In this document: positions 11,765 through 64,000 of the stretch, in pieces
How the letters are laid out: every line of letters begins with the position of its first letter
Position numbering within the stretch: position 1 is the stretch's first letter
Assembly: GCA_902806565.1 (NCBI GenBank)
Contig: CADCXA010000029.1
Coordinates: 868,001-932,000 of the forward strand
Origin: Hypoxylon rubiginosum
Lineage: Eukaryota > Ascomycota > Sordariomycetes > Xylariales > Hypoxylaceae
Length of the DNA stretch: 64,000 nt
Reading direction: 5' to 3'
The notes under the pieces: generated by a model
Seen by the model: only the letters and a program-made list of their open reading frames with translations
The model's database searches: none
What the model was told of the DNA's origin: nothing
Made by a program: the position numbers and the translations under genes

Positions 11765-13638
11765 CTACGCAAAATTGGCCGTCGCCCATCTGCTAGCGAT
11801 ATCATCGTCGCCACAGAAGTCTCCGAAGAGTTGGGAGAGCTGGATGCCGCCCTGTCCACTGCCCATTCTCGCGAAGACTTGCATGATTTTGTGTTTCTGG
11901 AGGAACTCCTTCAACGCGGCCTGGTCGTCATTGTGTATCCGGAGCAGCAGAAGCACCAGTGATGCAATTCCAGCGGCTAATGCAGGGGCCACAGACGACA
12001 TAGACTCACTTACATACCTTTTCATGTAGAGTGGGGCGCCAGCCTCAATATCCTCACCGGGGACCAGGATGTCGACGCCATTTTATGAGGTCGGTCTCAG
12101 GTGCCCGCACATGTTATTTGCGGCGACCCTAATAGTGTTTTCATAGCCGGCGGGGAACATCATGCCCTCCTCCATGCCTTCGTCCGCAGCGGGGCAGAAT
12201 ACCAGGATCGGAGAAGTCTGCGAGTTTGCAGCCGCATTCACGGCCTTCCTGATGGCTTCGCGCAGCCGATTGTCATCGGTATTTGTGTTCCGGCTGATCG
12301 AGATAATATCAACTTTCTGGTTGATCGCCCAGTCAACGGCCTGTCCAATAATGCCCGAATTAGTAATGAAAGTGACATCGTAACCTGCTATTGATGAAAG
12401 AAACAAGCAACCAAGTTTAACTATCCATACCTTTGCCACATTCTCTGGGAGAATATCTTCACGTCCTTCTCCCACCTTGGCAATGTAGAGACGACAGAAA
12501 GGATTCACCTTTTGGATTAGGGATACCGCATGGGTCTCATATGGGTCTGACCTGACATACTAAGGCTAAATTCTCCTATCGGCTCAAGCGTACGAAATCT
12601 CGCTCACGTAGTTATTCGTTTTCACAGTCGATGAGGTCGTATCTACGCCATTGCCGATAATGGCGATCTTGGTTTGACTGTCTTTGAATCTATTAAGTTC
12701 TTGACTCCGCGGTGCTTTCTTGCTAGTTTCGCTGAGATCCGACAGAAAGTTGTGACATGCTTCCAAATCCAATAGGATTCTGCTCTCAGTATAGTGGAAC
12801 AGCCAATTAGCAGTAGCGTAAGAGATAAATGGATACTGCTGATCGTCGATAGAGTTGTCCTGGACTGCTGTAGCAATATCCGACAGCGACAAATAGTTGA
12901 GACAGGATAGTGACAGCGTGCCGTGTGACTGGCGCATGTTGAAACGGCCTTTCCACTTATACTGTGGGTCAGGCTCTGCTGTGAGAAACTCCCGAGCTGT
13001 CTGATGAAGTAAAAACAGCTTCGAGTCGTAGACGTTGATGAGAAGGCCGCATAGGTTCTTCACCACGGTTTGGAAGGATTTTGGGTGCCATTTCTTCTTC
13101 GCAAATTCCACAAACGAAATGTGCCATTGTCTCTCTAGCGCCGATGTCAGGGCAACGTTAGCTTCGTCGAGAGTCAGAGGCTCTGCTGCAGCAAGCACGA
13201 TTTGAAGAAGCATGTCCGCCTGCAACGAATCTTTGCTTCGGCTCAAGATCTTTTCATACGCTTCTGATACTTGGGATGGCAGATCAGACAAAAGTGTTTC
13301 CATGTCTGACCGCCTGCTGTATTCGCTGGGACTTTGCTCAATGATGTCAAACGTTAGGTGCAACCAGAGATATGTGCGATTCTCCATGCATTTTAGACGT
13401 TCAGAAATTGTGCGGCGGTCTTCATCGGCTAAATCACCCCCAATGTCATGCGTTCTGGCGTCGATGACGAGGTTGATCTCTCGGCCGATTTGGTCAGACC
13501 TGTCGTCGCCGTCAAAGCGCATACATGTAGTTGTACCTGAAAACTTCCTGAAAGATGCCTCCAGATCGTCGTACGGGCGACTGGTGATGAGAAACTTGAG
13601 TTTGGAAGGATGGCTCCGCGATTGGTCCTGCTTGGTGT
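11765..13638 (-). pseudogene. 3' part of broken NACHT / subtilisin-like (NLR-type) gene
   Basis: This is the downstream half of a minus-strand gene whose 5' half lies at 50261-51811. From 13638 it continues the NACHT module: YTKQDQ, then KFLITSRPYDDLE, a YLWLHLTFDII helix, and the winged-helix-type block LFLLHQTAREFL. A subtilisin (S8) domain follows and is visibly dead. The Asp motif reads KIAIIGNGVD, with Gly where the catalytic Asp belongs. In-frame TGA, TAG and TAG codons fall between about 12543 and 12585. The His motif reads DPYETHA where HGT is expected. Another in-frame TAA (12083-12085) precedes GVDILVPGEDI. The Ser motif survives as SSVAPALAAG. The stops and the His-to-Tyr change fit C-to-T / G-to-A mutation. 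The family is fungal STAND/NLR-like; the S8 domain would have been the effector or partner domain. Confidence 0.88.
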
Positions 13639-13643
13639 AAAAC
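13639..13643 (+). repeat. Left target-site duplication AAAAC of outer LTR element
   Basis: The five bases AAAAC directly precede the left LTR (which starts TGTGAC) and are repeated exactly at 50256-50260 directly after the right LTR. Confidence 0.85.
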
Positions 13644-13966
13644 TGTGACAAGGGTCTGTATCAAAGACTTGGAATAGCTTTAATTTAATATAATAATTTT
13701 TATAGGTTTTAAGGTCCTTGATTCCTTTTAATTTAGATAGGAATTTAAGGCCTTATTTATATCTTAAGGTTATTATTTGATTTTTATTTTATTACCGCTT
13801 TAAGCGTTTAATTAATATATATTAATTTTATTATTTTAATTTAAGTTATTTTTATTTATTTAATTTTAATTAACTTATATATTAATATATAAAATATATA
13901 TTTATTAAAATTTATAATTATAAGTTTTTTTAATTAAATAAATTATTTAAATTAAACTATATAATA
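13644..13966 (+). repeat. Left LTR of outer element E1
   Basis: 323 bp that align without gaps to 49933-50255 at a constant offset of 36289. The differences I checked are almost all C/T or G/A transitions. This copy keeps more G+C (for example GGTCCTTGATTCC near 13712) than the right copy, so RIP hit the two copies unequally. Confidence 0.88.
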
Positions 13967-50260: not shown

Positions 50261-51811
50261 TCTTTAAGTTAGTTAATTAATTACCGTTTATTATTCTTAT
50301 TATATTCGTTTAAAGTATTAAAAATATAAACTATATCCTTTATATTTAAGGATTTGGCGCAATTTTCAAGGATTCGCTATAACTCGAAGAAATTTATCGT
50401 CAGCTTTTTAGAATTATTCTTATAACTGGGCAGCGCGTGTTCCATTAGGCTACCGGTAGAGTCTTGAGTGAAAAGCTGGTGGAGTATCGCACACAAGGCA
50501 TCGGTACTGTCCATACGGCGTTCATCTCCGTCCTTGAAAAAAAATTGACAGACGGTTGACGTTGTAACATTTGTAGAGAGTCGTTTCTCATCGATCAGAG
50601 CCCGCGATAAGACTGACTTTCCGCAACCAGGGCCCGCGGAGACCCAGAGAAGACTAGAAATTCTACTGTCTCTCCATCTGCGGAATCTGTCGTCGTCGAA
50701 GAACCACTCGCATGTGCCTGCCACCCTCTGTGGGTTGAAGTTTTTGTAGCCTTCATAGTCAGACGCGAGATCTCGAAGGAGACTTCTTTCCCACTGGTCC
50801 TCATAGATTCTCTGGGTCTGCTTTCTACCTTCTTCGAGGATATGCCGAATTTCATCGAGGATAGTCCGTGACTCCTGCATCTCTTGCAGTTGACTATCCC
50901 TATTTCGCCGTAATTCCTGCTCTCGAAGAGGAGGAATACAGTCGCTGCACCCCTTGCTCAAGTCAGTAACCTCACCCGCCAAGCCAACCCAGTCATTCCA
51001 ACCGGTCACGTCTTGCCATGCGCGGGAGAGTTGAGCGCTAGACAGGTGGCATATGACCCTGGCCTGGTATTCGATCACGTAGGAATAAAGCTTGGCTAAA
51101 GGCTCAACGAGATCTTGGTAATCTTGTTTATGCAAAGATTGGAGATAGGTCTCCTCACTGATATGCCAATACACTTGAACATCACCGATTGAATTAAAGC
51201 CTTTCAACATAGCCAGGTTTTGCGTGCTGCCGCTCGTAAGAAGCTGCCCTGGTAAGCACCCGCACAGGAGCCGGAGGAGTCATATACGTACTGGGAGAAG
51301 TAATGAAACACCAGACCATGCCAGCGCTGCATATGGCTGAGCGCTGACAGCGCTCTTGACTATTGGGTCGGACCAGAGGAGAAACTTTGCCAACCTCTCG
51401 GTTTGTTCCCGAATCTTTGTATCCTTTCCTAGAAGTGATACTCGCCATTGCTTCTTCTCCCGATCTTCCAACAGCTGCTTGACGATTGATTCGACGGACA
51501 GCGGGGTTGAGAGGTCTGCGCTGGCTGCAGTGTCTGTTCGCAGAGAGGCCAAGTGCTTCCTTCTTGTAGTCTACTGTCAGCCCGGGTTCTCGGTTCTTCA
51601 ATATTTCGTAAGCCCGGGTCCATGGATCGATGCCGTGGCTGGGGGGAGAAGAGGCCACGTCGGATGCTGTCGGCTGGGCAGGGAGTGCGGGGTTCGCTCT
51701 CGTAGACGGAGTCTCCTCACCGTTGCCAGCCTTGGGACCGCCGGCAGGCTTTTTCTTAGACTTTCCTGGCAGGCTGCCCTTCAGCTTCGAAAATAGTCTC
51801 ATATTGTTCAA
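50261..51811 (-). pseudogene. 5' part of broken NACHT / subtilisin-like (NLR-type) gene
   Basis: The upstream half of the NLR gene. It starts near 51811 (or at the next Met, MRLFSKLKG). A basic, low-complexity leader is followed by a NACHT_N-like region (DPWTRAYEILKN...). A one-base frameshift near 51556 separates YKKE from HLASLRTD. A 48-nt intron at 51244-51291 (GTACGT...GGCAG) joins LLLP to LLTSGSTQN. The NACHT P-loop SAGPGCGKS (about 50612-50640) is intact. An in-frame TAG at 50377 replaces an expected Trp codon. Beyond it the sequence is strongly RIP-altered: RILENCAKS is still readable, but the Walker B-like LDALDE block reads FNTLNE (about 50303-50325), and two TAA codons sit where CAA is likely. 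The gene then meets the AAAAC duplication and the transposon. It is non-functional. Confidence 0.88.
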
Positions 51812-52402: not shown

Positions 52403-53597
52403 TTATCTCTTCCCTATACACCTTGGAGCGAGATCTCGCAGCCTGATTTCAAGGTCAAGGTAGCAATCCCTTTCTGCTTTGCTCGGTGCTGATTGTGAAC
52501 TATTTGCCAAATACGGGTCTGGGCCTACGCCGGCGAGAGCCCTCAGCCTTCCGACGACTTCAATAGACTGTTGTATTTCTTTCCGTATCGTCTGTGTTCT
52601 GAAGGCCGACTGCTCCTCTGCGTCAATAGAGAAGCCTCCAAACCCAAGGCCAGATAAGTCCCCAGTTAAACTTCGACTCCTCTGCCGCTCCTCCTCATCA
52701 GCGACGATTGACATACAAACCTCTAGGAGCTCCAGGACTTGGTACATAAGAGTAACGAATAGCATTAAGCATCGAAAGTTCCTGGAGCTTTGCTGAAGGC
52801 CTATTAAATACGTCAATTTTTCCAGTGCCTTCCTAACAATTCCCAAGATAATCTTGAAAGCTCTTAAGTCGGCCATAATGTAATTCTCAAGGTCGTTGAT
52901 GATTTGACAAGCTTCTAAGCAGCACTGGCTATCGGCTTCACTCCTCGGCCGTAACCCTAGTGATATGAGCACTTGTGGCATGGCGGGCGAGTCCTCCGCG
53001 TGTTGCATCCGAGGGGAAATCGGTTGCTGATGCATTAGGAGATCGTCTAGATTCACATCCATGGTCATGGAAAAATCGGCGTTGTCATCGAGAGCTGTTG
53101 CGGAGTCGGAGGAGATAGAAGTTCCTTCTATACTAGTGTTCCGTGCAACTTGTATGTTGGAGGAGTCGTCTGCAAAGTTCGCACCGTCAAGATGCCAATC
53201 AGTGGTCCATTCAATCCCCACGTCAGAATCGCTGGGCTGGAAGCCCAGTTCCGATGGTGCAAGATTGGAAGTGGACGATCGATCACCCGAGGAGGTCGCT
53301 CTCATAGGTGGCCGCGGTGTTTCACGGCCTGCAAGCTGTTTCCTCCTAGCTCTGATACCAGGAACCTTGCCAACTCTCGATTCCATATAAACGCAATTCG
53401 ACCCGGTGGTTCGGCACCGTTCGCACCCTGTTATTTCTCCAGAACATTTAACCTGCGATTCTCTAAGTCCAAAGACATTGTGCCATGCGTAGGGCGAGTG
53501 GGCAAACCAGGAAACTTACCTTCGCAGTACAGCACTGATTACACGCACTTCGCAACCTGATTCGACTGCCTGGCGGGCTTTGCGGACTGCTTGGCAT
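52403..53597 (-). CDS. Zn2Cys6 transcription factor, AflR-like
   Basis: A likely pathway-specific regulator of the adjacent cluster. Two exons on the minus strand (53597-53520 and 53452-52403, intron 67 nt with GTAAGT donor and CAG acceptor) give 375 aa. The intron splits the DNA-binding domain, as is common in this family. The binuclear zinc cluster is complete: C19-C22-C29-C36-C39-C46 (CX2CX6CX6CX2CX6C) with an extra C23, and basic residues follow (KVPGIRARRK). A long Ser/Asp-rich linker leads to a helical C-terminal region (about residue 200 to the end: CCLEACQIINDLE, ILGIVRKALEKLTYLIG, FGGFSIDAEEQ). This resembles the AflR-type C-terminal domain of secondary-metabolite regulators. The start at 53597 is the only Met giving the full zinc cluster. 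Zn cluster identity is sure; the AflR-like assignment is probable. Confidence 0.88.
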
Positions 53598-56500
53598 TTT
53601 AGTAACTGAGTAAATTAACCATCTGCGATACACAACTTCAACTAACGGACCTTAGGGGAGAAGGCAGCATGGTAGGCAATGCCGATGTCTTCAGTACGAA
53701 TGTTTTCAGGAGATTGTAAAAGGGGTATAACAGGTGATCAACCACGAAGCCTAGCTTGCGCAGACGTGACAAACCTAAGATACCTTTACTGGTGCCTCTC
53801 AAGTAGCCTACGAAGTGCAAATAAGCCGTCGTATTATCCTAGGGGTTATGTGGCGGGAAATATTCGCATAAGCGAATGCAAGTAAGGATCCTTGCTGTGC
53901 CGTGTTATCGGATTAGAAGCGACGCTGGAGGCTGCGCCTCAATATTGCTTCAGGCTTCGGGAACGGCTCGCAATCTGTAGCCATAGCTGAGGATACAGCT
54001 ATAGTCGTTGGTTCAGGATCTACGGTGCGGGATCCAATCGAGATTTCACTTAGCTGCTTTCAAGACCCGACGATAGCTCTGGGGCACGCCCGTCTAGGTA
54101 TAACTCGCGAAATGAAGCGGTTTTCGACCTTAGTAGAAGGAATCGTAATGCATGGCGGCTTATTATTAACTTTTCAAAAACTTGTATTACATTGAATAAT
54201 ATATATGCAGGCTCTCATGCTGTACTACCTTTACAAGTGTAGGTAGGTGATGTAGGCTGGTGATTGGCATATATTGCCGACATAGCCAGCCTGCATGTTG
54301 TGTTCGCCATCGCGCCCCCGGATGCTTTAACGCGTCCGGATCTCTTCCATCATGTCCCAAATCTGGGCAAGTTTGCATACGATGTAGTCTGCAACTTGGG
54401 ATTTCTTATGATACCTAATAAGTTGGGCTTCGTATTATTGGGAAAAGGGGAAACACCTGTCGCTTGTAAGGCTTTGAAAGTGAGACCGGCCACAAGTCAT
54501 CGGCTGTACGGATGACATGTCGCATTCATGCAATGCTACGCCTGGAACCACTCACGCAGTCACGCCTATCTACAAACGACCTGAGTTCTCGTACCTAGGG
54601 GTAAAGGCAGGCTAGGTAGGGTAGGTGTCACAGCGCTTTCAATTGCAGGGTGATGCATGTAAAATGATGATAAGGACCGACCTCCAAAGCTCTCCAACAT
54701 CTTCCACACTGCTTACTCCACGAACGCGTTTGTTGCCGCGATTTTTGGCGCCTACGAGTGTGGCAAAATTATAGTAGTATGCATTACTCTGCGCCCTTGC
54801 CTTACTTTCCTCTTTGAGACCAACATATGTACAGCCACCCATTATACTAACGGGTGTTGGTGTATGGTTCTGGGCCCGATACCACGCTATCGCTTCCGCT
54901 CTTTGCCAGCTCTAGATTCGGGGCCGTTACTACACCAACAACTCTCATTTCTCACACTGGATCTCCGTGCTAGGCTGCATGATCCAGATTCCCTGGTCTC
55001 TGTCCCACGTCGTCCTGGAGGCGAGACTGAGCTGATAGTTCTCAACCAGGTGAGTGAGCGAGCAGAATGCGAATGATGAGATCAGCGTCGTATTTCCCAA
55101 GACACTGCCTGGGCGTGAAACCAAACCGTCAATATTGATACCTCATTTCCGAGCGCATAAATCTCAACGGTCTATATTCCGCACCATCCTTTCCCTAGGA
55201 AGGGCTCCGTGTATCAAGCGTGTACATAGATATCTACGACGAAATTGGTCCCTGTTGTGATCAAAAACCTACCAACCACGCGATGCGTAGGAGCGGCCTG
55301 GGGGATGGAGAATGCAGCTAGTGGCTTCAGTCGGGCAAATTCGAGCATCAACGCCAACAACAACGTCTCCAACCTCATTAGATACCTCTCCCAATTGTTT
55401 CCGCGTCACTATCTGACCTTGCTTGTCTGACTTTATCTCGAAGCTGGGTCTGCACATCTCAGTTGGGGGCAAGAAATAAGAGGTTCCACCAAATCTCGCC
55501 AATCGCAACATCTAAATTGCTATAAATTGCTAAAGAGCATTTCATCCAACCTGTGTAATACGTGGTCCTTGGTAACGCCCTCCGCTTGCAAGGATTTGTA
55601 CATTTGGATGATGGGTACGTTTCGTTGCGTTGACTTGCAAAGGTGAAATGCTGAGTTATTAGACGTAGCCTATTTCAACTTGAACTTGTACAGGTCCCAA
55701 CTTGTATAGGTCGCTATTGGTTCTTGTCGCTAAGTATCAGCTTCAAGCAAATCGTGATAAGTCACCTCGGATGACGTGTTCAAACAAAGACGGCCTTACT
55801 GGTATTAGGGCTCATAACTGAGTTTGCAAACCCGGAGTCAAATCACCATTAAGATACCTAGTCTGTCATAATACTGAATGGTAAAAGCTTTATATCCTTG
55901 GCTGGACTGATAATTCCCTGGTCCAGCCTACCTTTCGAGTTCAAATCCGCCAGATGCGCTCTGGTGAGCTCTGTGATTCTGAAAGTGCTCGTCGCAACAC
56001 TTCCGTGAGTAAACGCGACATTGGCCGACGAACCAACTTGTCCCCATTCGACTCTGGAGATCAGGCTAAGCCAAGGCATTTCCCCAAAAGTTAGCCCATA
56101 AGCCATCCATCATCGTTATCTAGTGCTTTGATATGCGTATCGGAGTTATTGGACGCGGTTTTGACGTCCTCTGGGGGTGGATAGGACTCTACAGTTAAAT
56201 TAGCATTGTGGCGGTAGACAGATATGTCATGAACGTACGGAGATAGAAACTTGTCCTTTCATGAAATACTACTAGTACTTGCCTGTAGCACGAAATTCAC
56301 GGCCTGCGGCCCTTATGAATCCCATCAATTTGAAAGACTAGGTATTGTAAACATCTGGTACTTCAAAAAAGTAGAACTTCTAAACTATATAGTAAAATTA
56401 AAACTTTTCTGCTATAATTAGTGGTAAGCAAATATTACCTGGTAGCTTGGCTCGTAGCTGGCCGTGACTTTGTGGCTCCTAACTAGAACCCCCTAACGAT
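53598..56500. other. Gene-poor interval between regulator and first methyltransferase
   Basis: About 2.9 kb with only short, unconvincing open frames on both strands. An 82-codon minus frame at 55858-56106 could be a relic, but I recognise nothing in it. A GGCTGGAC/GTCCAGCC stem lies near 55900-55928. No backbone enzyme fragment is visible. Confidence 0.5.
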
Positions 56501-56522
56501 ACGGACACCGATCGGCATCCGT
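56501..56522. promoter_or_regulatory. Paired CGGN3CCG sites upstream of methyltransferase 1
   Basis: CGGACACCG (56502-56510) and CGGCATCCG (56513-56521) are adjacent, forming a near-palindrome about 270 bp before the first ATG at 56790. It is the same core as in the other cluster promoters, a candidate binding site for the local Zn2Cys6 factor. Confidence 0.5.
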
Positions 56523-56599
56523 AGTAAATAAAAGTTCTAACTGGTCGGAATGGTACATTATACCGAGTAAATGGAACCTACCTGAATAATATTAATTTC

Positions 56600-56789
56600 A
56601 TATTACCTGTCACCATTTGGTACCTAGGTACATACCTACCTAACTATGTACTAGGTACATAAGGTAGGTAGGTACCTAAGTAGATGTCAGATTGTTAGGC
56701 ATTGCATAAAGATATACAATCTGCGAGGCCTTAAATATCTACCTAGTGGTGGTATCATCGCTTGCATATATTAGGTAGGTACCTTAGAA
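56600..56789. promoter_or_regulatory. TACCTAGGTA-rich upstream region
   Basis: Dense overlapping palindromes of the types GGTACCTAGGTAC, ACCTACCTA and GGTAGGTAGGTACC fill about 56620-56690 and recur at 56770, upstream of the methyltransferase. This motif also appears near 10830, 54600, 57850 and 63245, so it is a genome habit rather than gene-specific. Confidence 0.4.
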
Positions 56790-57740
56790 ATGCTTCGTGT
56801 CTATACGAGAGCCGTTTTTCCCAGTCAAAGGAATAAATACACTCTCCGCCGAAGCTCATTCTCTATTTTTGTACCCCGTCCCCGCAAACACGCCAATTCT
56901 AGCAACATGTCAGCTCCCTTTTTACCGAAACAGGCTGTCAAATTTGACGGGGCTCTAGCTCAAGAACTTCAAGGAGATGTGAGCGAGGCGATCGCCCGTC
57001 AGGTAATCAAGATCGTGCAGCCGATCAAGCCAGGCTTCATCATTCATGACAATGGTTGTGGATATGGATCCGTTACGGGCGAGATCATGACATCCGACGT
57101 CCCCTCTGACATCAAGATTCATTCGACCGACAAAAGCCCCAATTACTTGTCCCAATTGCGCGCCAGGCTGGCCCAAAATCCGTCTTGGCCAGTCGAAGTC
57201 GATGTTATGGACTCGAACAAATCAACCTTCCCTGACAACTATTTCGACCTTTCCATTACTGACTTCGTTCTTCTCGGCCTCGACGATGAGCTCGGTGCTG
57301 CTAAGCATATCCTCCGCACCCTCAAGCCCGGCGGAACGGCCGCTATTGCGATATGGAAGGAGAAGCCTTGGCAGGCTGCTCTGAAGGAAGCACATCGCCG
57401 AACTCGGGGTTCAGACGCGCCCCTTCCCCCTTTCCTTGCCGTCGTCGATTACGACACTGAGCAGTTTAAGAAGCTATTGGTTGAAGCTGGTTTCAAGGAC
57501 ACTCGATACTACGAGAGGGAAGCATGGGTCCATATGCCAGACCTCAAGCGCTGGGCTACCATTGCTTGGACCTTCCTTTCCACCCCCGTGGGCGGTTGGA
57601 AGCAATCTGACGAGGATGAGTGGGACGAAGCAATAAACATCTGTGTCGAGGAACTGCAGAAGGGCAATTCGCACACCATCAAGGATGGCGTTCACAAGAT
57701 ACGCATGATTGCTACCATCGGTGTCACGGAAAAGAAGTAA
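56790..57740 (+). CDS. SAM-dependent class I methyltransferase
   Basis: A single-exon protein of 316 aa, or 277 aa from the second in-frame ATG at 56907. It has the SAM-binding motif I IIHDNGCGYGSVTGE (D87, G89, G91, G93), an acidic loop (STDKSPNYL), a motif near VMDSNKSTFPDNYFDLS and the LKPGGTAAIAIWKEKPW block typical of UbiE/Methyltransf_11-type enzymes. The extra 39 N-terminal residues of the longer form are rich in Arg and Ser and free of acidic residues, like a mitochondrial presequence; the shorter form would be cytosolic. The position next to other cluster-type methyltransferases and a paired CGGN3CCG site suggest a secondary-metabolite role. The methyl acceptor (O, N or C) cannot be told. 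Confidence 0.88.
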   Translation: MLRVYTRAVFPSQRNKYTLRRSSFSIFVPRPRKHANSSNMSAPFLPKQAVKFDGALAQELQGDVSEAIARQVIKIVQPIKPGFIIHDNGCGYGSVTGEIMTSDVPSDIKIHSTDKSPNYLSQLRARLAQNPSWPVEVDVMDSNKSTFPDNYFDLSITDFVLLGLDDELGAAKHILRTLKPGGTAAIAIWKEKPWQAALKEAHRRTRGSDAPLPPFLAVVDYDTEQFKKLLVEAGFKDTRYYEREAWVHMPDLKRWATIAWTFLSTPVGGWKQSDEDEWDEAINICVEELQKGNSHTIKDGVHKIRMIATIGVTEKK

Positions 57741-58173
57741 GCAGTATTTTGGACATCTATAATGAAGTACGGTAACCTCAAGAATGAATTGAGCGAAAGT
57801 AATGTTGAATACAGCTGGCTTGTAGAGCCCTTAGGTTAGTTCCTACGTAGGAGGTAGGCAACTATGTATTACCTATACAAATTGGCTAGGTCTCAAGCTT
57901 GACACCCTTCTCGTGACACCCTTCTCGTGACACTTACTTCACGTCGTTCTTTGATAACTAGACCTCGTGATCGTAGTGCGCAACTCTCGTTCAGAGTTAG
58001 AGCCTCTAGAAGAGCATATGGAATTACCTATCAGATTACTGGCCTATAAGGTCCGTCAAAGATTGGGATATGGATTTAGATCGTCCATACAATTAAGCAG
58101 ATCTTCGGTGAAGTTTTCGATGGCTGATTGCCACCCGGGAGGCAGGTTTATTCCGAAGTTGGACCCCTAGGAG
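57741..58173. other. Intergenic spacer with 14-bp duplication
   Basis: No gene is supported. GACACCCTTCTCGT occurs twice in tandem around 57901-57928. Confidence 0.5.
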
Positions 58174-58184
58174 TCGGGGCCCGC
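58174..58184. promoter_or_regulatory. TCGGN3CCG site upstream of the O-methyltransferase
   Basis: TCGGGGCCCGC, 184 bp before the ATG at 58369. The CGG-GGC-CCG core matches the other cluster promoters, but the last base departs from the AflR consensus. Confidence 0.45.
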
Positions 58185-58368
58185 TGGTAAGCGCACCAAA
58201 ACATCGGCCGCCCTAGATAGGGCGGTCCAATAGGGAAGGAAGCAGGTCCGAGTGACTGCTGCGAAGCGATAGAGAGTGTACCGACTACAAAAATATAACA
58301 GTCGCGTCATGATTTCATTCTCAGCATTGCCTTCAGGTTTCGTCCTCATAAGATGAGATTGTGATACT

Positions 58369-59814
58369 ATGAACAATATGGTGTTTTCAACCCCCACCCG
58401 CATTTCTGAGCTTTCAAGCATAATCCAGCTGAATGTCGGGATTATTGATACATATTTCGATTCCGAGGGACTTGCTTCTCCCTCCTTTGATCTGGATTAC
58501 CCCCTTGACCTCCCAGACACCATCAGCCAAGCCCGGACCTCCGTGTTAGAGGCAACAGATGAGCTATCCGACTTGATGCTAGGTCCCCGGCAAATTGCTG
58601 AATGTCATCCGCCTCAGGTATATTTCAACTTAGAAATCTTCTGTCCAATTCTAACGATTCAATTAGCATACCTCATTGATTGGAATCCAAGCCGTCATTC
58701 GGTGGAATATCGCCGATCATCTGGGAGAGGACGAAGAGACGACATTTGAAGAGCTTGCAGAGAGATGCGGTGTGCCCAAGGATGACTTTACTCGGATTCT
58801 GAGGCAGGCGATGTCCAAGCATATCTTCAAGGAGCCGCGAAGAGGGATAGTTGCACACAGCGCTGCATCGACACTCTATAGAGGCGAGACTGGGTTGAAA
58901 GACTTTATATCCATCGCCTTGGATGACATATGGCCCTCTGCAACTCGTATGCTCGATGCAATGGAGAAGTGGAACTACTCACAAGATGCAAACAAAGCTG
59001 TATGTGTGTAACTTCACGAAGATGTCATAAAGCTGATTTGATAGGGGTTCAACTGTTCTCAGAACACCGATGAAACCTACATGCAGAGCATGAGGTCAAA
59101 CGATGGACGAAGGAAGGCATTCTCAAAAGTTATGAGCTACATGCAATCGAGGCCAGGCTTCGGATTTGCCTCCTCCCACCTCCTGGCTGCCTTCGACTGG
59201 AATTCGGTAGGTAAGGTCGTGGATATCGGAGGAGGCCTCGGCGACACGGGTAGGGATATCGTCCGGAACACCAAAGCTACCGAATGTATAGTCCAGGACC
59301 TCCCGGACGTAATTGCTGAGGCGGAACAGGAAGTGGAATTTGATGGCAGACTAAGATTCATGGGCCACAACTTCTTCGAGGAGCAACCTCTCAAAGATGC
59401 CGACGTGTACTTCTTCCGTTGGGTTTTACACGACTGGTCCGATATGCACGTCACAAATATTCTACGGAGTCTAGTCCCTGCGCTCAAGCCTGGGTCTAGT
59501 GTTATTATTCAGGAATTTATCATACCCCCGAGCGGGTCGGTCCCATTCTATCACGAGAAGACCATCAGGTGCGTCATGGATTACTGCACATTCATCTTTT
59601 GTTTATATTTTCACATGGTTCACGAGGCTCATTAGTTTGCCATCACAGGTGCATGGATTTGGCGATGAAGGCGGCCTTTAATTCAAAGGAGAGGGATATT
59701 GACTCCTGGATTCAGCTGTTCAGTTCGGCCGACTCACGGTTCAAGTTCGTCAATGCAAACGTTGGTGGCGCTGGCAATTTAGCAGTACTTCGATTTACTT
59801 GGGAAGGGAATTGA
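58369..59814 (+). CDS. O-methyltransferase, COMT type
   Basis: A SAM-dependent O-methyltransferase of the plant caffeate-OMT/sterigmatocystin-OMT superfamily (Methyltransf_2). Four exons (58369-58617, 58667-58999, 59045-59568, 59649-59814) give 423 aa with consistent phases. The N-terminal half is the dimerisation winged-helix region (IGIQAVIRWNIADHL, TFEELAERCGVPKDDFTRILR). SAM motif I is VVDIGGGLGDTG from V252. The acidic loop VQDLPDVI follows. The catalytic-type His lies in RWVLHDWSD (H323). The LKPGSSVIIQEFIIPP block follows. It probably methylates a hydroxyl of an aromatic or polyketide product in the local pathway. A TCGGN3CCG site precedes it. The gene looks intact. Confidence 0.93.
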
Positions 59815-59946
59815 CGACAGTCAGATGAAGTGCTGAGCTTGGTCAGAGACCGAATGGTGTCAGCAACCTTAGTACTCCCTTATAATTTCTTGAACTATGC
59901 CGTTGGCTCTTCCACATTTCCCTGGTAGAAATGAAAAGGACAAGGC

Positions 59947-59957
59947 TCGGTACCCGG
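59947..59957. promoter_or_regulatory. TCGGN3CCG site upstream of the P450 (full AflR-consensus match)
   Basis: TCGGTACCCGG fits TCGSWNNSCGR at every position and lies 170 bp before the proposed ATG at 60128. Confidence 0.5.
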
Positions 59958-59975
59958 TGTCAGCACAGGGATATT

Positions 59976-59993
59976 GCCGACGGTAACGTCGGC
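59976..59993. promoter_or_regulatory. Dyad GCCGACG-GTAA-CGTCGGC
   Basis: Exact 7-bp inverted arms around a 4-nt spacer, 135 bp upstream of the P450 start. The arms form CCG...CGG half-sites spaced by 10 bases, a geometry typical of Zn2Cys6 dimers. Confidence 0.45.
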
Positions 59994-60127
59994 GGAAATG
60001 TCTAGCTTGATTTCATAGCATCGTACCATTGCAACGCCTCATACTACCTACCTGTTAAATTCTCATGCGTATCTCTTCAAAGGCCCTCGTTCGCCGTATT
60101 GGCTCAGGCAGTTATAGTACCATCATT

Positions 60128-61963
60128 ATGGACGCCTATCCTGGAGTTATGAGAGGGGTTTTCCTCGCCGTCAGTGCTTGCTAAGTTACAGAAGGCGATT
60201 CCGTGCCTTGTAACGAGACCTATCTAATGATTGATTTAGTACCTCCTTTGGCTTCTTGGATATGTATTTTACAATCTATACATCCACGCACTTTCAGGAT
60301 ATCCCGGTCCATTTCTTAGGAAAGTCTTCAGTTTTCCGAGCGTGTGGGAAGTATTCACAGGTACTTCGGTCCGTAACATAGACGCTTTACATAAGAAATA
60401 TGGGAGTGTAGTTCGGGTTGCACCCGACGCTTTATCATTCTCCAGCGCACAGGCATGGAAAGGTTAATTCTTACTCTGGTTCTGACATGGTTTAGGAATA
60501 CATACTTATTACCTCGATAGATATCTATGGGTTCAAACAGAGAAGACGGCAGATCCCTAAGGATTACAAGCGCTTTCCGCCCATCGATGATGTCCTCCCT
60601 ATATTGTGTAGGTTGCCCGTATCTGTAGAAAGATGCTCACTCCTAACATAAATTCAAGTTTCCAGCGACACCGATCACGCGCGAATGCGCAAGCTTATCT
60701 CCCACGCCTTCTCAGAATCGGCCTTGAAGGAACAGATACCGCTTGTGGTCTCACATATGCGGGAATTCATACATCAGCTACGAACTCGGGTCAACGAAAG
60801 CAAGGATTTGACGATCGATATAAACGAATGGTGCAACTACCTGGCTTTCGACATCGTCACGGACTTGTCATTTGGTGAACCGCTCGGAGCCTTGAGTCGT
60901 GGAGCTCCAGATCCATATATTGATGGGTTCTTGAAGTCTTGTCGACTGTTCCCTATAATCCCACTTCTGTATGAATATTCTTTCGTTAGGCTACTATTCA
61001 ACCTGTCGATGAAGATTCAAGCTGTAAAGGGGAGCCAGGAAATGGGTTACCTTGCGACCAAAGAGAAGGTGGAAAGGAGAATGAGCCAAGATCGAACCGA
61101 GAAAAAGGACTTTATGACATACGTAAGTACTCGGACATTAATATCAACTTACTAAGCTAAATGTGTAAGTAGATTCTTCATTACAATGATGAGAAAGGCA
61201 TGAGCATTCCGGAGATCATTGGATCCACTACTGTGTTTGTGAATGCCGGGGGTGAAGCTACGGCCGCTTGTATATGCGCAACAATCTACCTCTTACTCAA
61301 GAATCCCCGGGCCTATGCAAGAGTCAAGACAGAAGTCTGTTCTTCGTTTCAATCAGAACGGAGCATCGAGACGAGTTCATTGAAGCACTTGGACTACCTT
61401 AATGCCGTTATAGAAGAGTCACTCCGCATCTACCCACCAACGCCAGGCAACTTTTCTCGCCGGACCGATGTCAGCACCGAGATCGATGGACATGTCGTGC
61501 CTCCTGGTGTAAGTCATTCAACTTCATTTGTCTATGAAACGATGAAACGGTGTTTGTAACAACATGGGCTAGACATCTGTTGGAGTACATCAATATTCGG
61601 CAAGCCATTCGCCACAGAACTTTCTATGGCCGGAGCAGTTCGCACCAGAGCGGTGGCTGAAGCATGCGCCGAAAGAATATGAAAATGATATAAGAGAAGC
61701 GGCCCAGCCTTGGGGGGTCGGTCCGCGCAACTGTGTAGGGAAAAGGTTCGTATCGGTCGTATTCGCCACCGTCCTTAGCATATGTTAACTTTCCCAGCGT
61801 GGCGGCGCTAGAGATCCGGATGGCACTGGCTCTACTATTGTGGAGCTTTGATATGGAGCTTCCCGAGGGAAGCAAGGGGTGGGCCGAAAGTCAGACTTAC
61901 AATATTGTTTGGAATCGAACGCCACTGTATATTCGATTAATCCCGACGGCCCGTTACTCGTAG
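60128..61963 (+). CDS. Cytochrome P450 monooxygenase
   Basis: A haem-thiolate oxygenase, probably ER-anchored, acting in the local biosynthetic cluster. I read seven exons: 60128-60169, 60240-60462, 60521-60607, 60659-61122, 61173-61508, 61573-61745 and 61798-61963, giving 496 aa. The N-terminal anchor is VFLAYLLWLLGYVFYN, followed by the proline hinge GYPGPFL. Helix I reads NAGGEATA (A297-A303), with Ala-Thr in place of the usual Thr-Thr after the acidic residue. ExxR is EESLR (E354-R357 region), followed by a PERW motif. The haem loop is PWGVGPRNCVGK, with Cys438 as the iron ligand and Trp replacing the usual Phe. The first intron (weak GTCAGT donor) and the AAG acceptor at 60658 are the least certain parts. 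Substrate and CYP family are not determined. Confidence 0.92.
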
Positions 61964-62026
61964 TACTGAATCACCGTAGTAGCGAGTTCTGTACTTAGAT
62001 TCGTAGCGGACCGAACTACCATCGTG

Positions 62027-62037
62027 TCGGGTTCCGA
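62027..62037. promoter_or_regulatory. TCGGN3CCGA palindrome upstream of methyltransferase 2
   Basis: TCGGGTTCCGA lies 145 bp before the ATG at 62183. It matches TCGN5CGA but has G at the W position of the AflR consensus. Confidence 0.5.
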
Positions 62038-62182
62038 CTAGGAGGCATGCAATCCGACCAACAGATTTACGATGGAGTACATAATATACATCTGGGTCAC
62101 ATTTTAAGCTATGGCGGGAGGTGGCATTCTTACCTACGAACATAGTAGTTATTCAATTCTGTCTTAGTCTTAGTCTTACACG

Positions 62183-63170
62183 ATGGCTACCTACGAGCAC
62201 GCATATCCTTTGGATAACGAGAAAGAGATAAGCAGGCTGCGAAACCAGCACGATGTGATCAAGGTTGCCATGGGAGGACTCGTCCTTGCCCCTGTTGACC
62301 TCTCCAAGTCCCCACTTAGAATTCTAGATTCGGGGACAGCCGACGGTAGGTGATGTGATCATCCGCGGCGCTATGATAGCTCTAAGCTCCCCTCGATTCT
62401 TAACATGCAGGCATTAATAGATCCCTATACAGGCACCTGGATTCGGGACCTTGCAGCCACGTGCGCCCCGGTACGGCACGAATTCTACGGGACTGACATC
62501 AACCCCGCAGATTTCCCAACCGACCCGCCGGCCGGTACGATCTATAAAGCCCACGATGTCAACAAGCCGTGGCCAGAGGATTGGAATAGCCGGTTTGACC
62601 TGGTACACCAACGCTTTGTCTTAGTTGCCGGGGGTCCTAAGCAAAAAGAAGTGCTTGAATCCCTCGGCGAATTAGTCAAGCCGGGCGGATGGATCCAGCT
62701 CATTGAAGCTACTAATGTGATTCCGGAAACCTGCGGGCCGGTTATGCATAGCTTTGTCAAGGTGATGAATGGGGTGTTCAAAGTTATGGGCGCCGACTTG
62801 AAGCTGACCGAAAGGATTCCGGAATGGCTCGAAGGCGCGGGTTTCATCGATGTTGAGGATCGCATTGTTCCGCTCAAGCTAGGCGCCAAGAACCCGGATG
62901 CAACCCTCGCTAGGAGGGGGGTATTCTCCACGACCTCAGCCGCCACAGGCCTTGCCGGCTTTGCTAAGAGTACGTTCAATTTGCCTTTGGCCGTAGCCTG
63001 CCCAATACTTCTATGCACGGATGCTGATCCAATCTTTAGCTCTACCTCAAGGTGCAGTCGATGTCGCCGTGGAGGAGCTCGAGACGCTTGGCTCTGACCT
63101 GGAAGAGGAGCTCATGAAGGTGGGAGGGATATATCCAGTCCGTGTGGTGTGGGGGCGTAAGGCCACTTAG
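62183..63170 (+). CDS. SAM-dependent methyltransferase, LaeA/TdiE-like
   Basis: Three exons (62183-62345, 62433-62969, 63040-63170) give 276 aa with matching phases. The N-terminus has the E-x-x-R-L-x-x-Q-H block (NEKEISRLRNQHDVIK) common to fungal secondary-metabolite methyltransferases. SAM motif I is ILDSGTADGTWIRDLA, spanning the first intron. YGTDINPADFP is the acidic ribose-binding loop, FDLVHQRFVL is motif IV-like, and VKPGGWIQLIE is a typical post-motif. The C-terminus ends VRVVWGRKAT. I chose the 3' splice site at 62432 over 62410 because only it keeps the DGTW motif in frame. It probably methylates a cluster product, as TdiE or gliotoxin-type enzymes do; a regulatory LaeA-like role is less likely given the cluster setting. 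Confidence 0.9.
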
Positions 63171-63599
63171 GTACTCACTCACTCAGCTCTTACATAGGCA
63201 TAAGATAGATACATCTAGGTCAGATATTTTCGTCAACCAAATACTAGGTTAGGTACCCAGGTACACATGGCTTAAGTGAGAAGTGTGCATCTGACCTGCA
63301 TTTCAGGCGTCTCGTTCATTTGCTTCAGCTTGTCCTTCCAACGAGTACTTCTCGGATACCGAAGCGTTCGGAACTGCAGCTTTCTATTAATATAATACAA
63401 GTAGTGTGGCACATACGGCTAGCGGTTGGCCATTGTGAGTGTAATATGCATCCAACTTGGAGACACCTAGGTCTTCACCTTACCCGCTCTTTTGCTCATC
63501 AGGAAAGGTGCTCCAAAGTATTTCTTTTCCTTTTTTTCGATCTTACCTCCACCTGCCGTTGTTTCTGGATTTCCCCAAATCTGCACTCTTATCGCTACT
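63171..63599. other. Intergenic upstream region of the membrane-protein gene
   Basis: No gene is seen. It contains GGTTAGGTACCCAGGTAC-type palindromic tracts near 63247 and a TCGGN3CCGA site at 63352-63362. Confidence 0.5.
63352..63362. promoter_or_regulatory. TCGGN3CCGA palindrome upstream of the rhodopsin-domain gene (full AflR-consensus match)
   Basis: TCGGATACCGA fits TCGSWNNSCGR exactly and lies 237 bp before the ATG at 63600. Confidence 0.5.
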
Positions 63600-64000
63600 A
63601 TGGATGCTTCTCTGTTATCTAGTTTGACACCTGAGCAGTTAGCTCAGCTGCCAGCTGGGCAGCCTCCGCCTGGTGTTGTGTCCAACTTTGACAATCCAGA
63701 CTCGATAGCCGGCAGTGCCATCGCCCCTATCTCGTTTTTCCTCGCCGTGATGATTATAGTGATGGCAATGCGGATGTATTGTCGGGTTTTCATTCTCAAA
63801 AGTGTTGGATTGGATGATTGGACGGCACTCCTGGCATCTGTAAGTTCCTACCATGCCCCAACCTCCAAGATTATGTCTAAAGGGATCTAGATGTTTGCTA
63901 CTGGACTTGCTGGTACAGCCCTATACCAGCTGTCCATGAATTGGTTCGGTCCTCATTCTTGGGACGTCCGCCTCACTGTCTACCTGTCGCCCACTTTCAA
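63600..64000 (+). CDS. Fungal rhodopsin-domain (SAT4/PTH11-type) integral membrane protein, 5' part
   Basis: Truncated by the window end. Exon 1 is 63600-63839 (80 codons) and exon 2 starts at 63891; the intron has GTAAGT and CTAG ends. After a Pro/Gln-rich N-terminus comes a transmembrane segment (IAPISFFLAVMIIVMAMRMYCRVF), then LKSVGLDDWTALLAS, the hallmark loop of the fungal rhodopsin-like domain. The next helix follows (MFATGLAGTALYQL) and then NWFGPHSWDVRLT. The family is usually a seven-helix protein of the fungal plasma membrane, often found beside secondary-metabolite genes; its function is poorly known. I chose the Met at 63600, which starts the family-like N-terminus. Confidence 0.85.

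What the first reader, a model, noticed from the sequence alone, without database searches (positions are those of the whole stretch)
56501..63362. A TCGGNNNCCG motif upstream of all five genes beside an AflR-like regulator
CGGN3CCG cores occur at 56502 and 56513, 58175, 59948, 62028 and 63353, each 145-270 bp before the ATG of methyltransferase 1, the O-methyltransferase, the P450, methyltransferase 2 and the rhodopsin-domain gene. TCGGTACCCGG and TCGGATACCGA match the AflR consensus TCGSWNNSCGR fully; the others match in part. A six-base core is expected only about once per 4 kb. Together with the Zn2Cys6/AflR-like gene at 52.4-53.6 kb this defines a probable regulon and extends the cluster through the rhodopsin-domain gene.
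Basis: partly seen in the sequence, partly recalled or inferred. Interest (0 to 1): 0.85.

Follow-up and report, generated by a model that had tools for sequence, protein, structure and literature searches.

The report
Shared promoter switch across fungal cluster
A short palindromic DNA site sits just upstream of nearly every gene in a fungal small-molecule gene cluster that lies between two sister regulator genes, which suggests that one switch controls the set; this is a strong example of a known kind of control, with an unidentified product.

Summary
All six CGGN3CCG sites exist, 147-280 bp before an ATG. The cluster runs on past the window to a second regulator, a paralogue of the first (57% identity). 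Between the two regulators 11 of 12 cores are noncoding and all 11 carry a TCGG half-site; noncoding DNA of the same contig predicts 1.4 and 0.65. Of 38,448 dyads scanned without prejudice, the two best describe this site. It is nearer to the predicted GliZ/SirZ site TCGGN3CCGA than to AflR's TCGN5CGA (2 of 11), and neither regulator has the AflR domain PF08493, which five other genes of this genome do. None of four backbone-synthase families was found in the cluster. The nearest NRPS, starting about 72 kb away, has a matching site 191 bp before its ATG, which is suggestive only. Binding and co-expression are untested.

The parts
52403..53597 (-). TF1, Zn2Cys6 regulator (about 375 aa, two exons; zinc cluster ACNQCCTAKVKCSGEITGCERCRTTGSNCVY split by an intron)
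   Evidence: Frames; Pfam Zn_clus 2.6e-05; own-genome hits at window 52406-53458 and 53511-53597; 78 homologues
56501..56511 (.). Site 1, ACGGACACCGA (TCGGTGTCCGT on minus), MT1 promoter
56512..56522 (.). Site 2, TCGGCATCCGT, MT1 promoter
56790..57740 (+). MT1, UbiE/Methyltransf_11-type methyltransferase (start at 56790 or 56907)
   Evidence: Pfam PF08241 2.4e-11; single open frame
58174..58184 (.). Site 3, TCGGGGCCCGC, OMT promoter
58369..59814 (+). OMT, Methyltransf_2 family; nearest solved structures HpiI (7bqo) and 7bqj
   Evidence: Pfam PF00891 7.7e-29; PDB 7bqo 6.3e-41, 7bqj 2.7e-39
59947..59957 (.). Site 4, TCGGTACCCGG, P450a promoter
60128..61963 (+). P450a (gene model approximate, incomplete at its end in the script)
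   Evidence: Pfam PF00067 6.9e-47
62027..62037 (.). Site 5, TCGGGTTCCGA (full palindrome), MT2 promoter
62183..63170 (+). MT2, probable methyltransferase; no Pfam match of its own at 0.001, 42% identical to MT3, which matches Methyltransf_23 just below that family's cut-off
63352..63362 (.). Site 6, TCGGATACCGA (full palindrome), RHO promoter
63600..64000 (+). RHO, fungal rhodopsin-domain gene; runs on to 64955 in window numbering
   Evidence: Pfam PF20684 3.2e-34

Best explanation
The sites are binding sites (TCGG-N3-CCG, an inverted pair of CGG half-sites, at least one with a 5' T) for the cluster's own Zn2Cys6 regulators. TF1, TF2 or a mixed dimer binds one or more sites about 120-280 bp before each start codon and switches on a tailoring and transport gene set of about 26 kb. 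Shown by computation: the sites, their confinement to promoters, the N3 spacing, the TCGG flank, the extension beyond the window, the two paralogous regulators. Inferred: that TF1/TF2 are the binders, that they activate, and that the genes make one product.
For: Between TF1 and TF2: 10,127 bp noncoding with 11 cores, all 11 with TCGG, against expected 1.40 and 0.65; 16,030 bp genic with 1 core and none with TCGG. Twelve other spacers (N0-N12 without N3) give 0-5 cores and 0-2 TCGG sites in the same noncoding DNA. Of 38,448 dyads the two best are CGGN4CGA (8e-13; 13 of its 18 occurrences come from the same sites, two counted on both strands) and CGGN3CCG (4e-10). 8 of 9 promoter regions have the site; 0 of 20,000 draws reach this. 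Held-out regions beyond the window: 3 of 4, reached by 0 of 20,000 for TCGG sites and 13 of 20,000 for cores. TF1 and TF2 have intact-looking zinc clusters. No core lies from TF1 to 56.5 kb or from 76.1 kb to TF2; a paper states the same lack for gliZ (passages of PMC4006717).
Against: No binding, expression or orthologous promoter DNA could be examined. TRX2 has no site in about 1 kb upstream. Many Zn2Cys6 factors share CGG half-sites, so another factor could be the binder. Background came from one contig: 16 of 20 fetched 10-kb stretches (4 dropped as under 35% GC) plus the left arm, with coding DNA called by a crude codon score; in the simulations stretches shorter than a promoter were used whole, which slightly favours my reading. 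In at least 12 named organisms TF1-type and TRX-type homologues are listed on different contigs. None of four backbone families was found in the cluster.
Confidence: 0.78

Rival explanations
1. The sites are real and functional, but the binder is a different Zn2Cys6 factor (for example an RglT-like protective regulator encoded elsewhere), and TF1/TF2 act otherwise.
For: RglT of A. fumigatus binds gliZ, gliT and gliF promoters and its peaks are enriched for TCGG and CGGNCGG (passages of PMC7384679). The genome has at least 142 Zn_clus matches (150 of 228 candidates scored). A GliT-like gene outside the cluster also has such sites upstream.
Against: Eleven promoter sites in one cluster bounded by two regulators point to a cluster-specific factor. 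RglT's motifs as printed are not the N3 palindrome.
Confidence: 0.14
2. Chance: a six-base core that is common in the genome, picked post hoc from a GC-moderate stretch.
For: The motif is not enriched genome-wide and the left arm has a similar raw density.
Against: Held-out promoters, spacer specificity, TCGG flank in 11 of 11 (theoretical chance 1e-4), two best of 38,448 dyads, 0 of 20,000 simulations. Left-arm sites are mostly in predicted coding DNA.
Confidence: 0.03
3. True AflR-type regulon: the regulator is an AflR orthologue and the cluster makes an aflatoxin-like polyketide.
For: Four of 11 sites match TCGSWNNSCGR. Three listed homologues are labelled 'Aflatoxin regulatory protein domain' by a source (P0035, P0038, P0051).
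Against: PF08493 not matched by TF1, TF2, any of 33 family members or those three labelled homologues at E up to 10, while it finds five other genes in this genome. TCGN5CGA in 2 of 11. The nearest ketosynthase match on C29 is at 1.41 Mb.
Confidence: 0.05

Closest known systems
GliZ/SirZ regulon of gliotoxin and sirodesmin clusters (predicted site TCGGN3CCGA)
   Same: Zn2Cys6 gene in the cluster; N3 CGG palindrome with T flanks in nearly every cluster promoter but not the regulator's; MFS pump, P450s, methyltransferases and GliT-fold proteins in the set
   Different: Only 2 of 11 sites are full TCGGN3CCGA; two regulators; no NRPS found in the cluster; the two GliT-like proteins lack the CxxC pair (NxxA, CxxT); no M19 dipeptidase match on the contig
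AflR regulon (TCGN5CGA)
   Same: Same half-site geometry; a zinc-cluster gene embedded in the cluster
   Different: CGG/CCG core is invariant here and the outer CGA is not; PF08493 not found
Promoter-motif-defined fungal clusters (for example Fusarium graminearum clusters with palindromic motifs, PMC4198257)
   Same: Over-represented palindrome in cluster promoters used to predict co-regulation (passages)
   Different: Different motif, organism and gene content

Membership tests
Zn2Cys6 cluster-specific regulon of GliZ/SirZ type | TCGG-N3-CCG(A) in the promoters of cluster genes | tested here: met
   8 of 9 promoter regions, 11 sites; full TCGGN3CCGA in 2 of 11 only
Zn2Cys6 cluster-specific regulon of GliZ/SirZ type | Regulator is a GliZ/SirZ orthologue | not tested
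   No GliZ or SirZ sequence was compared; none is named among the 78 TF1 hits
Zn2Cys6 cluster-specific regulon of GliZ/SirZ type | Regulator binds the site and drives the genes | not testable with these tools
   Needs gel shift, DAP-seq or deletion
AflR | AflR domain PF08493 beside the zinc cluster | tested here: not met
   TF1, TF2, E up to 0.1; 0 of 33 members, E up to 0.01; TF1 and 6 homologues, E up to 10; positive control: five other places in this genome match
AflR | Canonical TCGN5CGA sites | tested here: not met
   2 of 11 promoter sites
ETP biosynthetic cluster | Two-module NRPS (P) in the cluster | tested here: not met
   No condensation-domain match between 853.4 and 1,620 kb of C29; nearest NRPS starts at 848.8 kb, outside
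ETP biosynthetic cluster | Thioredoxin reductase (T) with CxxC | tested here: not met
   TRX1 NxxA, TRX2 CxxT; a CxxC copy lies at C29:809.8 kb, about 111 kb away
ETP biosynthetic cluster | Dipeptidase (J) linked | tested here: not met
   PF01244 matches only on C50, C31, C37
ETP biosynthetic cluster | Glutathione S-transferase (G) and ACCS-type gene (I) linked | not tested
   None recognised among the models; no dedicated search was run
Fungal biosynthetic gene cluster in general | Contiguous tailoring enzymes, transporter and regulator | tested here: met
Fungal biosynthetic gene cluster in general | Backbone synthase inside | tested here: not met
   no match to PF00668, PF00109, PF11991 or PF19086 between 853.4 kb and 1.41 Mb of C29; other backbone families were not searched

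The most novel reading that the evidence does not exclude
A scattered regulon. Two sister zinc-cluster regulators control, through one TCGGN3CCG site, both a tailoring cluster without a known backbone gene, with GliT-like enzymes that have lost the redox cysteine pair, and, about 72-111 kb away on the same contig across housekeeping genes and AT-rich blocks, an NRPS (site 191 bp before its ATG) and a CxxC-bearing GliT-like gene (two sites). The motif would thus find the missing backbone that gene proximity misses.
Probability: 0.22. Interest if true: 0.62.

Novelty: new member of a known kind. Interest (0 to 1): 0.45.

Why it matters
If true, the motif sets the cluster's borders without expression data (TF1 to TF2, about 28.6 kb), gives eleven ready sites for a binding test, and offers a way to look for the missing backbone gene. 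The paired regulators raise the testable question of whether they bind as a mixed dimer. TRX1 belongs to a well-supported clade of GliT-like proteins most of which keep Asn and Ala where the two catalytic cysteines should be; members share a contig or a gene model with methyltransferase genes in some other fungi, and their chemistry is unknown to me.

Tried and rejected
Chance from base composition: rejected with same-contig noncoding DNA of equal GC, spacer controls, held-out promoters and a dyad scan. Whole-window shuffles (16 against 2.68) were not used as the main test, because the AT-rich block distorts them. AflR membership: rejected on PF08493, with a positive control, and on TCGN5CGA. 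ETP cluster membership: rejected on P, T and J. Backbone inside the cluster: four families searched, none found there. Other Zn_clus genes near the NRPS: none listed on C29 between 724.9 and 981.7 kb, but that list also misses TF1 and TF2, whose zinc clusters are split by an intron, so this is weak.

The distant sites were weighed with their controls. Upstream DNA of one NRPS and three further GliT-like genes was read: NRPS 1 TCGG site at -191 (464 bp seen); GliT-like at C29:809.8 kb 2 sites, about 300 and 507 bp upstream, the farther one inside an open frame of unknown status; GliT-like on C69 1 site about 880 bp upstream in GC-rich DNA; GliT-like on C6 one core without TCGG. TRX2 has none. 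At the background rate the NRPS site has about a 3% chance (my arithmetic), so it is only suggestive.

Literature: string searches for TCGGN3CCGA (2 papers) and CGGN3CCG (the same 2 among the 10 listed of 602) and topic searches (not all rows were listed) showed no paper that I recognised as describing this cluster. Passages were seen of PMC4006717, PMC7022936, PMC7384679, PMC12881047, PMC3202775, PMC2045112 and PMC4198257; the other papers were seen as listings. Term searches inside PMC8395729 (motifs) and PMC8403587, a survey of Hypoxylaceae clusters (thioredoxin, AflR, gliotoxin, binding motif, Zn2Cys6), found no occurrence. SirZ's own paper was not held.
Full report
What was checked. The six CGGN3CCG cores are present at the stated places and lie 147-280 bp before the ATGs of five genes, with MT1's start taken at 56790. 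The core occurs once per 4.25 kb in this 48.3-Mb genome, and neither it nor TCGGN3CCGA is enriched genome-wide over the reversed pattern to any useful degree (11,350 against 14,945; 826 against 748). The emptiness from 10.8 to 56.5 kb is mostly composition: 14-50 kb is 5-18% GC.

The cluster is longer than the window. Thirty kb of downstream DNA (L005-L007) continues it. In window numbering: RHO to 64955, P450b (-, 65.5-67.25 kb), TRX1 (+, 67.61-68.63), MFS (-, 69.0-70.7), MBOAT-like (+, 71.3-72.6), TRX2 (+, 73.84-74.87), MT3 (-, 75.1-75.9), P450c (+, 76.3-78.2) and a second regulator TF2 (+, about 79.75-80.99). Beyond that come a weakly alpha/beta-hydrolase-like gene, a protein that looks secreted by eye and a 1163-aa ORF. 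Families; MT3 scores just below its family's cut-off and MT2 has no match of its own. Gene models are from a simple codon and splice-score script and are approximate. Four pairs are paralogous: TF1/TF2 57%, MT2/MT3 42%, TRX1/TRX2 36%, P450b/P450c 33%. In a tree TF1 groups with Hypoxylon and Annulohypoxylon proteins and TF2 with a Monosporascus and an unnamed protein, so the regulator pair looks older than the species (supports 0.995 and 0.976). TF2's start is uncertain: TF1's start codon is not kept there, and a four-residue first exon is my guess.

Is it more than chance? Between the two regulators there are 10,127 bp of noncoding and 16,030 bp of genic DNA. Noncoding holds 11 cores, all 11 with at least one TCGG half; genic holds one core, without TCGG. 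Background noncoding DNA of C29 (93,991 bp, from 16 of 20 fetched stretches, 4 dropped as AT-rich, plus the left arm) gives 0.138 cores and 0.064 TCGG sites per kb, that is 1.40 and 0.65 expected. Twelve other spacers give at most 2 TCGG sites. Over nine promoter regions, 8 have the site; none of 20,000 draws from background noncoding DNA reaches that (best 4). The five in the window are 5 of 5 (0 of 20,000). Background stretches shorter than a promoter were used whole, a small bias in favour of my reading. Because the motif was picked after looking, I also ranked all dyads: of 38,448, CGGN4CGA and CGGN3CCG are first and second; 13 of the 18 occurrences of the first are the TCGG-flanked form of the second, and the other five (60087, 67284, 67347, 67367, 67520) are near-matches in two of the same promoters. 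Divergent promoters share sites: 67380 (P450b/TRX1), 70942 with 71096 and 71107 (MFS/MBOAT), 76086 (MT3/P450c). TRX2, TF1 and TF2 have none.

Results against. The left arm has 10 cores in 13 kb, a similar raw density; 7 are in predicted coding DNA and 1 of the 3 noncoding ones has a TCGG half. TRX2 lacks a site. There is no binding or expression evidence, and no orthologous promoter DNA was within reach.

What kind of regulon. [quoted passage not shown] also PMC7022936). The canonical AflR site is TCGN5CGA (passage of PMC3202775); TCGGN3CCGA is a special case of it, so the two share geometry. Here the CGG/CCG core is invariant, and 9 of 11 sites keep the outer T or A on one side only: 2 of 11 are TCGN5CGA and 4 of 11 match TCGSWNNSCGR. 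TF1, TF2 and 31 relatives match no Pfam family but Zn_clus at E up to 0.01 (31 of 33 match that one). Three homologues that a source labels 'Aflatoxin regulatory protein domain' do not match PF08493 either, while five other places in this genome do. I therefore call it a GliZ/AflR-like regulon, not an AflR one.

What the cluster may make. No NRPS, PKS, DMATS or terpene-synthase match (four families) lies between C29:853.4 kb and 1.41 Mb (window is 868-932 kb). TRX1 and TRX2 are GliT-like (best solved structure GliT, E 9e-65 and 7e-57) but lack the cysteine pair: NxxA and CxxT. NxxA is shown by 11 of 111 aligned proteins, TRX1 included; they form a supported clade of 13, whose other two members do not show it, one being a fused gene model. 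A second TrxR with CxxH or CxxQ is reported to be needed for disulphide migration and spiro formation in aspirochlorine (passage of PMC12881047), so altered motifs can mean new chemistry. OMT's best solved structures are HpiI (7bqo) and 7bqj; that these are pericyclase-type relatives is recalled, not from a call. Parts of the gene set are kept elsewhere: TF1-type and TRX-type homologues share organism and contig length in seven cases, TF1-type and OMT in one, TRX-type and OMT in six, two of these six on contigs without a named organism (for the latter two searches only the best 120 of 1393 and of 375 hits were listed). Tags are adjacent in Xylaria grammica (EKO27_g8723/g8724), and MT1-type domains are fused in gene models to TRX1-type (Pestalotiopsis fici) and OMT-type (Paraconiothyrium) proteins. 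Against this, in at least 12 named organisms TF1-type and TRX-type hits are listed on different contigs.

A possible wider regulon. The nearest NRPS starts at C29:848,765 (PP-binding, condensation, AMP-binding, then a second condensation domain) and has TCGGCACCCGG 191 bp before its ATG. A third GliT-like gene, with CxxC, at C29:809.8 kb has two TCGG sites about 300 and 507 bp upstream. Both are on the window's contig but separated from the cluster by housekeeping genes and AT-rich DNA. Of four such upstream regions read, three had a TCGG site. Suggestive only.

Verdict. A well-supported in-silico regulon of a known kind, larger than described, with the regulator's label corrected and the product unknown.

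Noticed in passing
window 12083-13660 and 50377-51802, either side of 14-50 kb: Pieces of NACHT-type genes on the same strand flank the 36-kb AT-rich block: NACHT_N and the first part of NPHP3_N on the right; on the left weak matches (below the families' cut-offs) to DUF7069 and winged-helix domains, and a subtilase piece. One NLR-like gene may have been split by the block. The pieces were searched apart and not joined.
   Followed up: partly
window 14001-50000; also L017, L025, L030, L032, and L036 7000-10000: Extremely AT-rich DNA (down to 1-10% GC) recurs along contig C29: 4 of 20 sampled 10-kb stretches were under 35% GC. It looks like scattered mutated repeat islands rather than one centromere.
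   Followed up: no
L005 3610-4626 (TRX1): A clade of GliT-like proteins, most of which have Asn and Ala where the two redox cysteines should be (HNLFAQ), in Xylaria, Monosporascus, Diaporthe, Lojkania, Paramyrothecium and others.
   Followed up: partly
L039/L040 (C29:848301-851800): An NRPS that begins with a carrier domain followed by condensation and adenylation domains; it starts about 19 kb left of the window, near a P450 at 837.9 kb.
   Followed up: partly
window 53599-55906: A 2.3-kb stretch upstream of TF1 without a recognised gene and without CGGN3CCG; one CGGN4CGA at 54118.
   Followed up: no
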